The translations under genes were made by a program, and so were the position numbers. Positions 40,143 to 63,959 of a stretch of 64,000 bases of DNA are shown piece by piece (within the stretch, counting starts at the first letter, position 1; each line of letters starts with the position of its first letter). Below the pieces are notes generated by a model that saw only the letters and a list, made by a program, of their open reading frames with translations, ran no database searches and was not told where the DNA came from. Source of the DNA: SAR324 cluster bacterium (lineage in GTDB: Bacteria; SAR324; NAC60-12); the NCBI GenBank assembly GCA_015232315.1, contig JADFZZ010000020.1, positions 1 through 64,000 of the forward strand, written 5' to 3'.

Positions 40143-41294
40143 ATGTCTGTATTATTTCCTGATAAAAAAATCGCGATTGTTCATGATTGGCTCAATGGCA
40201 TGCGCGGAGGCGAAAAATGCCTGGAAGTTTTTTGTGAAATTTTTCCTCAGGCCCATCTGTATACCCTGATCCATGAACAGGGAAAACTGTCAGACGTGAT
40301 TGAAGCCATGGACATTCGTACTTCCGCTCTTCAAAAAATTCCCGGTGGTCTGACACATTACAGGCATTTCCTTCCCCTAATGCCCAAACTTGTGGAGCAG
40401 TTCAAACTGGATGATTATGACATCATCCTGAGTTCCAGTCACTGTGTGGCCAAAGGCATTTCCTATGCGGATCATCCCTTCCACATTTCCTATGTCCATG
40501 CGCCAATGCGTTACATGTGGCATTTGTTTGATACCTATTTTTCTCAGGAAAAAGTGGGCTGGGGAGTGCGTCTGGCCGCGTTGACCGCAAGACCCATGCT
40601 TCAGAAATGGGATGTTGAAACCTCTTCGAGAGTCCATGCGTTACTGAGCAACAGCCAGAATGTCAGAAAACAGATACAGAAATATTATTATCGAGACGCA
40701 CAAGTGATTTATCCGCCTGTCGATCTGGAACAGTATTACCCGGGCGGAACTAAACAGCGGTATTACCTGATGGTCGGGGCCTTTGCTCCCAATAAACGTA
40801 CAGATCTGGCAATCAAGGCCTTCAACCGTGCAGGGTATCCACTTCGTATCGCCGGGACGGGTCAGGAAGAAGCCTATTGCCGGTCAATCGCTTCAGCCAA
40901 TATCGAGTTTCTGGGGAATGTGAGTGATGATGAACTAAGAATTCTGTATCAGGAAGCCCGGGCGTTTATTTTTCCCGGAGAAGATGATTTCGGCATCACA
41001 CCGCTGGAAGCCCAGGCCTGCGGGACACCTGTTATCGCCTTTGGTGCAGGCGGTGCTCTGGAAACCGTGACTGAACAGACCGGGATCTTTTTCTATGAGA
41101 CCAACGATTCCGCCTTGTATGAGGCCATTGAGCAAATGGAAGACAACTGGAAAAACTTTGATCCACACGCTTGTGTTCTGAACGCGACACGTTTTGGACG
41201 TGAGCGCTTCAAAATGCAGATGTCTCATGCTGTAGAGTTTGGCTACCAGCAGTGGAAACAACGTTCAGGCAAGTCAAAATCTCCCCTGCCGTAA
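40143..41294 (+). CDS. GT4-family glycosyltransferase
   Basis: A 383-residue GT-B glycosyltransferase. The N-terminal domain starts IAIVHDWLNGMRGGEKCLE, and the C-terminal donor-binding domain has VGAFAPNKRTDLAIKAF, IEFLGNVSDDELRILYQEARAFIFPGEDDFGITPLEAQACGTPVIAFGAGGALETV. The E-x7-E motif (EDDFGITPLE) binds the nucleotide sugar. The pattern resembles WbaZ-type mannosyltransferases of O-antigen or exopolysaccharide synthesis. It lies 6 bases after the MBL gene. No other polysaccharide genes are nearby. A hairpin terminator follows. Confidence 0.9.
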   Translation: MSVLFPDKKIAIVHDWLNGMRGGEKCLEVFCEIFPQAHLYTLIHEQGKLSDVIEAMDIRTSALQKIPGGLTHYRHFLPLMPKLVEQFKLDDYDIILSSSHCVAKGISYADHPFHISYVHAPMRYMWHLFDTYFSQEKVGWGVRLAALTARPMLQKWDVETSSRVHALLSNSQNVRKQIQKYYYRDAQVIYPPVDLEQYYPGGTKQRYYLMVGAFAPNKRTDLAIKAFNRAGYPLRIAGTGQEEAYCRSIASANIEFLGNVSDDELRILYQEARAFIFPGEDDFGITPLEAQACGTPVIAFGAGGALETVTEQTGIFFYETNDSALYEAIEQMEDNWKNFDPHACVLNATRFGRERFKMQMSHAVEFGYQQWKQRSGKSKSPLP

Positions 41295-58968: not shown

Positions 58969-59949
58969 TTATTCGCACATCGGTGATGGTGGTATTTCTG
59001 TGTTAAAGCTCAGGCGCGCATGATGGATAATAACCTGAATATGCCCATGAAACCCATTGACGTAGACCGGGATATGGTGATTTTTATGCCAGTTGCGGGC
59101 TTGGTCGGCACGTTCATCACACCACAGCCACGCAGGTGCCGGAACCAGAGAATATTCCGGACTGACTTTATCAAAAAACACATTGGGCACCAAAGATCGG
59201 CCGCCATGATGCGGAACCTTGAGAATTTCTGATTTCAATTGATCCGAAGTTTCCGCGACGTATTGTCCCATTTTTTCACCAAGATCGCCGGTGAACAGAA
59301 TCTTGTGTCCTGCAAATTCCAGTTGCAGAACCATCGACATGTCATTGATTTTATTGGTGGGTCCTATTGGAGTGTGGATCGCGTCAGAAACATTCAAAAC
59401 ACGCATCAGCGCCCCTCCGCCAAGATCGAGTTCCTGTCCGTTTTCAACCTCAAGGAGCGGAATCTTCCGGTTTTCCAGCAGAGCTTTCATGTCAAGAACA
59501 CTCTGGTAAACACAACGGGGGCTTTCAGCGTCACACAAAGCACGGTCTGGAACATGAAAATACACTTCCTTGACGCGTATTCCGGATTTCACAATCTGAA
59601 ACAAACCTTCATAGTGATCCCGGTGCGGATGAGAAATGAATACACGATCAATCTGTTTTACATAATTTTGTTTGAGCCAGGGCATCAGTTTTTCTTTGGC
59701 AGGTTGCTCGTATCCGGCATCAATGAGAATTGTTTGACCATCACGGATCTGAATCAGGTGAGCATCCCCCTGTAGCGTCGTATGGTTGACATTGACCATT
59801 GTCCAGCGGAAATCCGGCATAGACCACCACATAACTCCTCGAGCCACATAGTCCTTCAACAAATCCTGATTGTTATGTATTGCCGCTCCTGTGATAACCC
59901 CGAGAATAAAGAATGACAGGGTCTTGAATGAGGGTAAAAATTTTTTCAT
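58969..59949 (-). CDS. membrane-anchored MBL-fold hydrolase (ComEC C-terminal-like)
   Basis: A 326-residue metallo-beta-lactamase-fold protein with one N-terminal membrane helix (about 9-27), so the domain probably faces the periplasm. Motifs: ILIDAGY, ISHPHRDHYEG (H-x-H-x-D-H), LFTGDLGE and KVPHHGG. This is the layout of the ComEC/Rec2 C-terminal nuclease-like domain, without the competence membrane channel. Such proteins are nucleases or phosphodiesterases. Its ATG is 3 bases after the DUF4435 stop, so it is translated from the same operon as the ATPase-DUF4435 pair. It could be part of that system or only share its transcript. Confidence 0.82.
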   Translation of the reverse strand: MKKFLPSFKTLSFFILGVITGAAIHNNQDLLKDYVARGVMWWSMPDFRWTMVNVNHTTLQGDAHLIQIRDGQTILIDAGYEQPAKEKLMPWLKQNYVKQIDRVFISHPHRDHYEGLFQIVKSGIRVKEVYFHVPDRALCDAESPRCVYQSVLDMKALLENRKIPLLEVENGQELDLGGGALMRVLNVSDAIHTPIGPTNKINDMSMVLQLEFAGHKILFTGDLGEKMGQYVAETSDQLKSEILKVPHHGGRSLVPNVFFDKVSPEYSLVPAPAWLWCDERADQARNWHKNHHIPVYVNGFHGHIQVIIHHARLSFNTEIPPSPMCE

Positions 59950-59952
59950 AAA

Positions 59953-60801
59953 TTATTCAAAAACAGTGAATGGTTTATGTTCCTGTTCCCAGTTTTTCAA
60001 GGACTGATAAACAGCGGTTTTCCTGAAATTTTCTTCAGAATAGGCCAGACGCAGATCACTTTCCAGCGAGGCACGGCCCAGTTTGTCAGCATTTTGAGAT
60101 CCAAATGTGAATTTCAGTCCCATCAACAACACGGAAACCAGATCATGTCCGCATGACATCTGCCAGGCGTTTTCCAACTCAACCTTTAAATGGTTCAGAT
60201 ATTTTCGGATAGCCCCGACAGGCGCACCCACAGAAGAATTAAGACGGAGTGATTTCAGCAACTGATCCCTGTTGATTTTCAGGGTTTGCGGCTCAACAAA
60301 GTGTTCAAAATTCAAATGACTGAACCGGATGTTCAGATGTTGATTGAGAGAAAACCAGCGGCAACCCCCCAGAATATAGCCAGCGTCAATCAAGGTGTCC
60401 AGTATTGATTTTTTCACACGTCGTTCAAATTGTTCGATTCTGTCATCATCCCCATATTCCGCCAGCACTTTGGCCAGTGCTGAAGAGGATAAAATCATGC
60501 TTTCCAGATCATGGCAATCGGTCATTATCACATTGGGCGAAGGGGACACAATGTGATCCACACGCCAGAAATCCGCATCCACAATACCCACAATTCCGTC
60601 CAGATCTTGTTCCAGGGTCGTGACCATTTTGAGGACAGATTCCTTGCTGAACGCTGGAACAACCCTGCAATGCTCATTGTTGACAAACATTTTATAAAAT
60701 CGGGCATCCGAATCACCTTCCACCACGATAAACACGCCCTTGTGCCGGACACGTTTCATCCGAATCGAGTTTACCAGAGCATGGGGCGAGCGTTCCATCA
60801 T
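59953..60801 (-). CDS. DUF4435 TOPRIM-like nuclease (PARIS AriB-like)
   Basis: A 282-residue protein with a TOPRIM-type core: FIVVEGDSDARFY (catalytic Glu28 and Asp30), then GIVGIVDADFW (Asp75, Asp77) and TDCHDLESMIL (Asp98, Glu100). This is the DUF4435 pattern. In PARIS anti-phage systems the DUF4435 protein AriB is released from its ATPase partner on phage anti-restriction proteins and then cuts tRNA; here the role is inferred. The ATG overlaps the ATPase stop by 4 bases, and GAAGGAG precedes it. The MBL gene follows after 3 bases. A DNA- or RNA-cleaving repair role with an OLD-like ATPase is the main alternative. Confidence 0.78.
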   Translation of the reverse strand: MMERSPHALVNSIRMKRVRHKGVFIVVEGDSDARFYKMFVNNEHCRVVPAFSKESVLKMVTTLEQDLDGIVGIVDADFWRVDHIVSPSPNVIMTDCHDLESMILSSSALAKVLAEYGDDDRIEQFERRVKKSILDTLIDAGYILGGCRWFSLNQHLNIRFSHLNFEHFVEPQTLKINRDQLLKSLRLNSSVGAPVGAIRKYLNHLKVELENAWQMSCGHDLVSVLLMGLKFTFGSQNADKLGRASLESDLRLAYSEENFRKTAVYQSLKNWEQEHKPFTVFE

Positions 60802-62099
60802 GCGTTGTCTCCTTCAAGCGCGATGGTCAGATCCCAGCGGTCATTGATGATTTCAGGCGAATGGGTCGCAACCAGCACATCGCATTCATTGATTTTTATA
60901 ATTTTCTGCAATTGCTGTAAAAATTCTTCCTGCCACAGAACATGGAGCGACAATTCGGGTTCATCAATGAGAATCAGGGACCCTTTGGGGGTTTTGAACA
61001 ACAATTCATACAGCAGCACCATTTCATGTTTTTCACCGGAAGACAAAACATCAGGTGACAGAATATGCCCTTGTGTGGACTGAAACAGGAAGCCTCGCTG
61101 TTTATCAATTTTCAGTCGTTTATGACTGAAAAGTTTGTTGACAATGGCGGTGAATAATTCAATCCGGTTGGCCAGTTCAGACAGCAGACTCAGTTTGTTC
61201 CAGGTATCTTCAACATAGAGAGAAAAAGCCAGACGCAGGTGTTTTTCCAGACGGGACGGCATTTCAAATTCGGTTTGTTCATCCATGCTCAGCAATCCGG
61301 TTTGAAGCAGTCGAATCCGGTTTTTCTCAAGATCCTGAAACTTTTTTTTGAGTTGAGCCTCATCCAGAATATCTGTTTTGCCTGACAGCAGTCTTGACGG
61401 ATAACTGATATCCAAAGATTGGGCCAGGGCCGCATAACGGGCCAGTTCTGCCTGGATCAAGCGTACCAGTTCCCGTGAATAGAAGTTGACTGAATCCATC
61501 ATGGAAGAAACCAGGCTGGAAGGTTCGGACAGCGTGTGCCGCAGAAACAGACGCTGAGCATCAATTAACCGGATATCACAACGGTCCTGCAACTGCTTCA
61601 GCCATTCAGGTCGCATTTCCTCAAGGTAGTATTTCAGCGAAGGAATGGATTGCCCAAAGGTGTCAATGACATCTTCCAGCGACCAGATTTCCTGTGTTGG
61701 CAGATATTGCCACGAGTTATTCCCTGTTCGTTTGAGCGAGGGAACACTGCGCTCTATGTCATGGAGAACGCCCATCAAATCCTGATTTTTGGAAACAGGC
61801 TCCAGTCGATATTGCTGATTCTGATAGCTGATCGTGAGTGCGGAATTCGCTGACATCACCTGATCCTTGTGCAACATAATCCTGCTTTGGTCTTCCAGCA
61901 GAATCTCACATTCCTGAAAGGGAATTTTTGCCAGAGCAATTTCCTGATGATTGAAAAAATAATGCAGGATCCTCAGAATGGTTGTTTTTCCAAACCCGTT
62001 GGGACCGTGCAGGATGGTGATGTGGTCTTTGTGGTTGAGGGCCAGACTATAATCCAGTGTCCCGAACAATTTTGTAATAACCAGTTGTCTGACTTGCAT
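60798..62099 (-). CDS. AAA/ABC-type ATPase of a DUF4435 pair (PARIS AriA-like)
   Basis: A 433-residue SMC/ABC-like ATPase. The N-terminal lobe has Walker A GPNGFGKTT (residues 32-40). The central helical insert (about 100-320) replaces a long coiled coil. The C-terminal lobe has the ABC signature LSSGEKHEM, Walker B LILIDEPELSLH and the switch VLVATHSPEII. This matches the AAA15/AAA21 ATPases that pair with DUF4435 proteins. In PARIS, AriA forms a cage that holds AriB and senses phage proteins. Size and layout fit, but the sensor surface cannot be judged. GGAAGGA precedes the ATG. It diverges from the amidase gene across 108 bases. Confidence 0.8.
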   Translation of the reverse strand: MQVRQLVITKLFGTLDYSLALNHKDHITILHGPNGFGKTTILRILHYFFNHQEIALAKIPFQECEILLEDQSRIMLHKDQVMSANSALTISYQNQQYRLEPVSKNQDLMGVLHDIERSVPSLKRTGNNSWQYLPTQEIWSLEDVIDTFGQSIPSLKYYLEEMRPEWLKQLQDRCDIRLIDAQRLFLRHTLSEPSSLVSSMMDSVNFYSRELVRLIQAELARYAALAQSLDISYPSRLLSGKTDILDEAQLKKKFQDLEKNRIRLLQTGLLSMDEQTEFEMPSRLEKHLRLAFSLYVEDTWNKLSLLSELANRIELFTAIVNKLFSHKRLKIDKQRGFLFQSTQGHILSPDVLSSGEKHEMVLLYELLFKTPKGSLILIDEPELSLHVLWQEEFLQQLQKIIKINECDVLVATHSPEIINDRWDLTIALEGDNA

Positions 62100-62207: not shown

Positions 62208-63959
62208 ATGCGATTTATCAATCTGATTATTTGTTTTCTGGCGATCTTTATCGGAATTACCGGTTGGAGCAACACTGCGGAAGCCGGAAAACGGCAGACT
62301 GTCGCAACCAAAGAGTTTGTTTACAGGCAGGACTATAAGATACAGGTAGGCTTTGATGGCAGGAACATCATCACCCGCCTGATGCCTCAGAATGGTGAAG
62401 GTACCTACAGTTTTGCCGTGCGAACGTTGAAAGATCCCGGCAATAATTTTAAAAATATTAAAAAATACAACAACAACCGTCCCCTCTATAAAAACCGTTA
62501 TGTCCGCATTCCTTTTGAAATACTGAATGATAATCTGCAAAGTCTGGCACTCAAGGCGTTGTTTCCAAATGACACCAGTGAAGCTGAAGGTTGGGCGCAT
62601 CGTGTCACTTACAGGGGTGAAACATTGAGTTTGATTGCGATGACTTTCATGCGTGACGGCTTCGGCTCATCCCAACTGGCAACGTTCAATCACCTGAGAA
62701 AAGGTGGCAGGTATCTCAAAAAAGGAGATACGGTGGTGATTCCCTGGAAGTGGATGCGTGAAGGGCTTGAATTGCGCCCCATGAAAGTGCAACCTCCCTT
62801 GACGGCAAAAGCGGATTCAACGGGCAAGACCTGGGCGTATTATCAGATGAAACGGGGCGACGCGATTTATTCCTCGGTCATTGTGCGGTTCACCGGACGA
62901 ATGCTGGCGGACGATGTCAGTAAAATGGCCGGGGATCTGTTGAAACTGAATCAAATCTCTGACCCCAAACGTATTACTCCGGGAACAGAAATCAAAATCC
63001 CACTGGAGTGGTTGAGCGAGGAATTTTTAGTACAAGACACGCCACGCCCATCACCAACCCCTGGGAAATCTTTAGCCAGAAAAGCACGTCAAGTGGCGAA
63101 AACCAGGCCAGTGGTTGAACAGCAGGAACAAATTCATGTCATTCTGGACGCAGGGCACGGTGGCAAAGATCCCGGTGCCACTTTCAAACATCCAACGCAA
63201 CGGGGTCATGTTTTTGAAGATGAAGTGGTGTTTGATATCAGCCTGCGAATGCTTCCCCTGCTGACCAAAAGCGGTTATGTGGTTCATCCCACACGCTATG
63301 ACATCAATAATAAACAGCCTGTTGAAAACTTATTGAGCAGAAAAGACGAAGATGAAGTCCTGATGGTTCACCCCAATTACCAAATAAGCGATACCAGAGC
63401 AGGTATCAACATGCGGGTCTATCTGATCAACTATCAATACAAGCAACTGGTCAAAGCTGGTGTGAAACCTGAAAATATACTGCTCATGAGCCTTCATGGA
63501 GATGCGTTGCACGCGTCTTTACGGGGTGCGATGGTTTATTATCCTGATGCGCGTTTGCGGCGTTCCAGTTTCCAGCTTGGCGGCAGAATTTACCGGAATA
63601 TTCAGGAGTTTCAACGGGTCCTCCAATTTGATGACGACGACAATCGTGAAGCCGCCAGTGTCAGTTCGGCCTTTGGAAAAACCGTGATTGATTCCTTCAA
63701 AAAATCAGGACTTGCGGTCCATCCCTCTTCTCCTGTAAGAGGTTATCATTACCGTGGCGGAAAACGCACGTTACCGGCCATTCTGCGCTATAGCAAAATT
63801 CCCACCTCTGTGCTGGTGGAAATCGCCAATCTTGGCAATATGAGAGACCGAACCGATGTGTTGAAAGCAGAAATCAGACAAAAAATGGCGGAGTCCCTGG
63901 TGTCATCGATTGACACGCATTACAGCACCAGCAAAACTATCACGATCGCGAAAAATTGA
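62208..63959 (+). CDS. N-acetylmuramoyl-L-alanine amidase with LysM-like repeats
   Basis: A 583-residue exported cell-wall hydrolase. A signal peptide covers residues 1-26 (GWSNTAEA). Two LysM-like units follow (HRVTYRGETLSLIAMTFMRDG and YYQMKRGDAIYSSVIVRFTG ... GTEIKIPLEWL), then a Pro-rich linker, then an Amidase_3 domain: zinc ligands in HVILDAGHGGKDPGA (His), EDEVVFDI (Glu) and SLHGDAL (His), and the catalytic Glu in LVEIANLGN. It cleaves the amide bond between MurNAc and L-Ala. The insertion RLRRSS..FQRVLQFDDDD is longer than usual. No clear ribosome site precedes the ATG. The 41 bases after the stop contain no further feature. Confidence 0.92.
   Translation: MRFINLIICFLAIFIGITGWSNTAEAGKRQTVATKEFVYRQDYKIQVGFDGRNIITRLMPQNGEGTYSFAVRTLKDPGNNFKNIKKYNNNRPLYKNRYVRIPFEILNDNLQSLALKALFPNDTSEAEGWAHRVTYRGETLSLIAMTFMRDGFGSSQLATFNHLRKGGRYLKKGDTVVIPWKWMREGLELRPMKVQPPLTAKADSTGKTWAYYQMKRGDAIYSSVIVRFTGRMLADDVSKMAGDLLKLNQISDPKRITPGTEIKIPLEWLSEEFLVQDTPRPSPTPGKSLARKARQVAKTRPVVEQQEQIHVILDAGHGGKDPGATFKHPTQRGHVFEDEVVFDISLRMLPLLTKSGYVVHPTRYDINNKQPVENLLSRKDEDEVLMVHPNYQISDTRAGINMRVYLINYQYKQLVKAGVKPENILLMSLHGDALHASLRGAMVYYPDARLRRSSFQLGGRIYRNIQEFQRVLQFDDDDNREAASVSSAFGKTVIDSFKKSGLAVHPSSPVRGYHYRGGKRTLPAILRYSKIPTSVLVEIANLGNMRDRTDVLKAEIRQKMAESLVSSIDTHYSTSKTITIAKN

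What the first reader, a model, noticed from the sequence alone, without database searches (positions are those of the whole stretch)
58969..62099. PARIS-like ATPase - DUF4435 pair extended by a coupled MBL-fold gene
Seen: an ABC-type ATPase (Walker A GPNGFGKTT, LSSGEKH, IDEPELSLH), a DUF4435 gene with TOPRIM-type acidic motifs overlapping it by 4 bases, and a membrane-anchored MBL hydrolase starting 3 bases after the DUF4435 stop. Established: ATPase plus DUF4435 is the layout of the PARIS anti-phage system (AriA/AriB). Inferred: the third gene may be part of the system, for example a membrane-side nuclease or phosphodiesterase acting with or after AriB. A conserved MBL partner would make this an undescribed variant.
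Basis: partly seen in the sequence, partly recalled or inferred. Interest (0 to 1): 0.8.

Follow-up and report, generated by a model that had tools for sequence, protein, structure and literature searches.

The report
Ordinary PARIS pair, unrelated MBL neighbour
This is a standard two-gene PARIS anti-phage defence module (a sensor ATPase plus a nuclease that probably cuts tRNA); the third gene behind it, a secreted-type hydrolase, is a neighbour found elsewhere without PARIS and is absent from all other PARIS loci examined, so this is a new but ordinary member of a known system.

Summary
On the minus strand lie a 433-aa ABC ATPase (60798-62099), a 282-aa DUF4435/Toprim protein overlapping it by 4 bases (59953-60801), and a 326-aa metallo-beta-lactamase (MBL) fold protein starting 3 bases later (58969-59949). 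The pair is PARIS (AriA/AriB). It meets the published detection rule. The ATPase family profile matches solved AriA full-length (5e-35) far better than PtuA or OLD. The predicted DUF4435 structure (pLDDT 95.7) has only two significant PDB matches, both solved AriB. The Toprim acidic residues are kept. The "MBL-extended variant" reading is not supported. All 80 closest AriA relatives from other genomes carry AriB directly downstream, and none has an MBL gene right after it; nor do 19 virus-derived loci or the nine plasmid and phage loci read. Conversely, the MBL's nearest orthologues (about 47% identical), in two genomes of the same family, sit among glycosyltransferase and membrane-protein genes, and those genomes have no detectable AriA or AriB. 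The MBL is the ComEC type with an N-terminal membrane anchor, so it probably acts outside the cytoplasm, away from PARIS. It is most likely an operon passenger. Novelty: new member of a known kind.

The parts
60798..62099 (-). AriA-like ABC/AAA_15/21 ATPase, 433 aa, predicted PARIS sensor
   Evidence: Pfam AAA_21 81.4 bits and AAA_15 68.6 bits; PADLOC AriA 7.9e-30; family profile vs PDB AriA 5e-35 full length against PtuA 7.8e-17 partial; model pLDDT 88.9, top 16 Foldseek hits all PARIS structures
59953..60801 (-). AriB-like DUF4435 Toprim nuclease, 282 aa, predicted PARIS effector; overlaps ariA by 4 bases
   Evidence: Pfam DUF4435 61.9 bits; PADLOC AriB 2.3e-26; Toprim residues E28 G29 D32 D75 D77 D98 E100 conserved across 47 homologues; model pLDDT 95.7, only PDB hits at E<=0.001 are AriB chains 8ux9_A and 8v46_D
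58969..59949 (-). ComEC-type MBL-fold hydrolase, 326 aa, N-terminal membrane anchor; adjacent gene, probably not part of PARIS
   Evidence: Lactamase_B 5.1e-13; TIGR00361 ComEC_Rec2 2.5e-20; best PDB match is a ComEC-family MBL protein 2.5e-13; orthologues at 46-47% without PARIS

Best explanation
The locus is a two-gene PARIS anti-phage module (ariA-ariB) with an unrelated gene for a membrane-anchored, probably extracytoplasmic MBL-fold hydrolase directly downstream. By analogy with E. coli PARIS, AriA would form an ATP-bound assembly that holds AriB inactive; a phage protein binding AriA would release the AriB dimer, whose two-metal Toprim site would cleave host tRNA and stop translation, aborting infection. 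Shown here: family, fold, catalytic residues and gene order. Inferred: oligomer, trigger, tRNA substrate. The MBL gene shares the strand and perhaps the transcript, but most likely not the function.
For: Published PARIS rule (AAA_15 >=32 or AAA_21 >=27 bits next to DUF4435 >=27 bits; PMC9122126) is met at 68.6/81.4 and 61.9 bits. PADLOC AriA and AriB. ATPase family profile: AriA 5e-35 full length, PtuA 7.8e-17, OLD 2e-11. Foldseek: AriB 2.6e-6 and AriA 1.2e-18 as top hits. Toprim residues invariant or nearly so. All 80 nearest AriA homologues have AriB directly downstream (one with a fragmented frame), 36 with the same 4-base overlap; none with an MBL gene directly after AriB, 72 of them with at least 1.5 kb of downstream sequence. 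Nineteen virus-derived loci and the plasmid and P2-like phage loci read are two-gene units without MBL. In the phylum, pair and MBL co-occur in no genome but this one. MBL orthologues in G028 and G030 stand beside YfhO-like or glycosyltransferase genes.
Against: The 3-base gap suggests co-transcription, and the lack of an obvious Shine-Dalgarno before the MBL would fit translational coupling to ariB. No second genome of the same genus was available, so lineage-specific recruitment cannot be excluded. AriB is too divergent for sequence search to reach the solved AriB; the link rests on profiles and fold (TM about 0.55-0.59).
Confidence: 0.92

Rival explanations
1. A three-gene PARIS variant: the MBL is a lineage-specific third component, for example a membrane-side nuclease or phosphodiesterase acting after AriB or limiting it.
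For: Tight spacing (3 bases) and same strand; no obvious own Shine-Dalgarno, so translation may be coupled; MBL proteins of related type occur in other defence systems (weak PADLOC matches to LmuA and PDC-M48B).
Against: No MBL directly after AriB in 80 of 80 closest loci nor in the viral, plasmid and phage loci read. Orthologues occur without the pair. Best matches are ComEC-type, and a conserved N-terminal hydrophobic segment points outside the cytoplasm.
Confidence: 0.05
2. The ATPase-Toprim pair is not PARIS but another OLD/Septu/retron-type ATPase-nuclease, for defence or repair.
For: The ATPase alone scores almost as well against PADLOC PtuA models (2.3e-27) as against AriA (7.9e-30).
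Against: Partner is DUF4435, not an HNH PtuB or a fused OLD Toprim; profile and fold comparisons rank AriA and AriB first by many orders of magnitude.
Confidence: 0.03

Closest known systems
PARIS (AriA/AriB), E. coli B185-type, structures 8ux9, 8v45-8v49
   Same: Two-gene ATPase plus DUF4435-Toprim cassette, same order, same folds, same Toprim acidic motifs
   Different: Sequence divergent (AriB about 13% identity to solved AriB by structural alignment); here followed by an MBL gene that other PARIS loci lack
ComEC/Rec2 C-terminal MBL domain and stand-alone ComEC-type MBL proteins
   Same: MBL fold, HxHxDH motif, best sequence match of the third gene
   Different: Here a stand-alone 326-aa protein with one N-terminal hydrophobic segment and no ComEC channel domain
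Septu (PtuA/PtuB) and retron PtuA ATPases
   Same: Related ABC ATPase
   Different: Weaker, partial profile match; partner is an HNH protein, absent here

Membership tests
PARIS | AAA_15 (>=32 bits) or AAA_21 (>=27 bits) ATPase adjacent to DUF4435 (>=27 bits) | tested here: met
   AAA_21 81.4, AAA_15 68.6, DUF4435 61.9 bits, genes overlapping by 4 bases; rule from PMC9122126
PARIS | ATPase closer to AriA than to PtuA/OLD | tested here: met
   Profile vs PDB: AriA 5e-35, PtuA 7.8e-17, OLD 2e-11; Foldseek top 16 all PARIS structures
PARIS | Effector has AriB fold with intact Toprim acidic residues | tested here: met
   Foldseek only significant hits 8ux9_A and 8v46_D; E28 G29 D32 D75 D77 D98 E100
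PARIS | Hexameric AriA sequesters AriB and releases it on a phage trigger such as Ocr | not testable with these tools
   Needs biochemistry; described in PMC12409363
PARIS | AriB cleaves tRNA (tRNA-Lys in E. coli) | not testable with these tools
   No assay possible; position equivalents of AriB K60/K64 were not mapped
   0 of 80 closest loci, 0 of 19 virus-derived loci, 0 of the nine plasmid and phage loci read have an MBL directly after AriB
Septu / retron PtuAB | HNH partner PtuB next to the ATPase | tested here: not met
   Downstream gene is DUF4435, then MBL; no HNH family matched
ComEC-type MBL | MBL domain resembling the ComEC C-terminal domain | tested here: met
   TIGR00361 2.5e-20 restricted to profile positions 450-634 of 663, below that model's whole-protein cut-off because the channel part is absent; PDB ComEC-family MBL 2.5e-13

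The most novel reading that the evidence does not exclude
In this genus the MBL has been recruited as a third, membrane-side component of PARIS, translated by coupling to ariB.
Probability: 0.05. Interest if true: 0.5.

Novelty: new member of a known kind. Interest (0 to 1): 0.13.

Why it matters
It adds a PARIS locus in a poorly sampled bacterial phylum and shows that adjacency with a 3-base gap is not by itself evidence of a new defence component: the nearest relatives keep the pair without exception and never show this MBL. The AriB fold match across about 13% identity supports treating divergent DUF4435 proteins as AriB-type nucleases.

Tried and rejected
Viral-contig scan with AriB alone found nothing and with the MBL alignment found no relatives. 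The AriB alignment was not conserved enough for a genome scan; the ATPase alignment was used instead. Four loci contain an HxHxDH protein somewhere in the fetched stretch (L091 3.5 kb downstream; L093 1.1 kb downstream with another gene between; L104 about 180 bp upstream of the ATPase; L105 1.7 kb downstream); none directly follows AriB and none resembles the window MBL beyond general MBL level. The empty-site comparison was uninformative: the flanking LysM-amidase gene is conserved in the family but the genes around it differ from those in the window. No promoter or terminator signal clearly above the shuffled background between the genes. PDB sequence searches with two other AriB homologues also failed to reach solved AriB.

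Full report
Observation. The quoted motifs are present. Pfam matches are far above cut-off for all three.

What the pair is. The published PARIS rule asks for AAA_15 (32 bits) or AAA_21 (27 bits) next to DUF4435 (27 bits) (PMC9122126); the window gives 68.6, 81.4 and 61.9. PADLOC names AriA (7.9e-30) and AriB (2.3e-26). PADLOC alone does not separate AriA from Septu PtuA (2.3e-27), so two further tests were made. A profile of 42 ATPase homologues finds solved AriA over its full length at 5e-35, against 7.8e-17 for PtuA and 2e-11 for an OLD protein, both partial. AlphaFold2 models built on homologue alignments (AriB pLDDT 95.7; AriA 88.9) were compared with the PDB: the only matches at E<=0.001 for the DUF4435 protein are the AriB chains 8ux9_A and 8v46_D (TM 0.51-0.59, 12-13% identity), and the first 16 matches of the ATPase are PARIS structures. 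Sequence search alone does not reach solved AriB. The Toprim residues E28, G29, D32, D75, D77, D98 and E100 are invariant or nearly so in 47 homologues. The E26A mutant of E. coli AriB is inactive (PMC12409363), and E28 in the E-G-x-x-D motif is its likely counterpart (inference; no residue-level superposition was made).

Relatives. A genome-wide scan with the ATPase alignment kept the 80 best relatives, 32-42% identical, from cyanobacteria, KSB1, Campylobacterota, archaea and others. All 80 have an AriB-profile match directly downstream (one, L084, as a fragment 328 bases on), 36 with the same 4-base overlap. Nineteen virus-derived loci show the same pair. Plasmids of Vibrionaceae, Enterobacterales and Streptomyces, and a P2-like Yersinia phage with the pair between repressor and integrase genes, carry it as a two-gene unit. 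In gammaproteobacterial genomes DUF4435 over cut-off was found in 7 of 274.

The MBL gene. No homologue of the window MBL lies directly after AriB in any of the 80 loci, of which 72 have at least 1.5 kb of sequence downstream of AriB; none occurs in the viral, plasmid or phage loci read. In 52 genomes of the phylum, DUF4435 homologues occur in four genomes and full-length MBL orthologues in three; only the window's genome has both. The orthologues in G028 and G030 (45-47% identical, each with an N-terminal hydrophobic segment) lie beside a glycosyltransferase (G030), a YfhO-like membrane protein (G028) and, in both, a large protein that in G030 carries FG-GAP repeats and a weak MBL match. The pair in G035-G037, and its remnant in G033, has HesB/IscA-like and other housekeeping-type genes downstream, not an MBL (the naming is by inspection of the translations). 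Sequence relatives of the MBL are ComEC-type, and most hits in PARIS-bearing genomes are ComEC-sized frames elsewhere in the genome.

How it likely works. In E. coli, AriA senses phage proteins such as Ocr and releases AriB, a two-metal Toprim tRNase (PMC12409363). The same is inferred here; trigger and tRNA target are unknown. The MBL, with a basic N-terminus and one hydrophobic segment, is predicted to face outwards (inference), where it would not meet AriB or its RNA substrate. There is a precedent for operon company without shared function: the Salmonella StySA BREX locus carries an ATPase-DUF4435 pair that does not affect BREX methylation (PMC9009780).

Limits. MBL genes at PARIS loci were sought by BLAST with the window MBL and by the HxHxDH motif, so a very divergent MBL could be missed. 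The relatives were chosen by similarity to this ATPase, which is the right set for this question but not a census of PARIS. No genome of the same genus was available.

Verdict. An ordinary PARIS locus in an under-sampled phylum with a passenger MBL gene. New member of a known kind; low interest.

Noticed in passing
L035:3-1283 (G037, contig start): The AriA frame begins with a DnaA-like stretch (FVVGPNSRMAHAAALAVAES...GFGKTHLLHMI, recognised by eye) joined at the Walker A motif to AriA sequence; probably an assembly chimera at the contig end.
   Followed up: no
L037 and L038 (G036, G033): The AriA gene of two relatives is interrupted by in-frame stops or frame changes, suggesting decaying PARIS copies or sequencing error.
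   Followed up: no
L093:3737-6756: A Planctomycetota PARIS locus is followed by an RNase III-like gene (named by eye) and then a secreted MBL protein about 1.1 kb downstream of AriB.
   Followed up: partly
L104:4462-5817: A cytosolic-looking 451-aa MBL protein lies about 180 bp upstream of AriA on the same strand in a Riflebacteria genome.
   Followed up: partly
L048:4643-6792: ariAB pair in the P2-like Yersinia phage vB_YenM_31.17 between repressor and integrase genes, annotated only as ATPase and hypothetical protein.
   Followed up: yes
window 62208-63959 and 40143-41294: In three relatives (G028, G030, G031) the LysM-amidase gene is followed directly by a gene about 57-63% identical to window 40143-41294; in this window the two are 21 kb apart, indicating a rearrangement.
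   Followed up: partly
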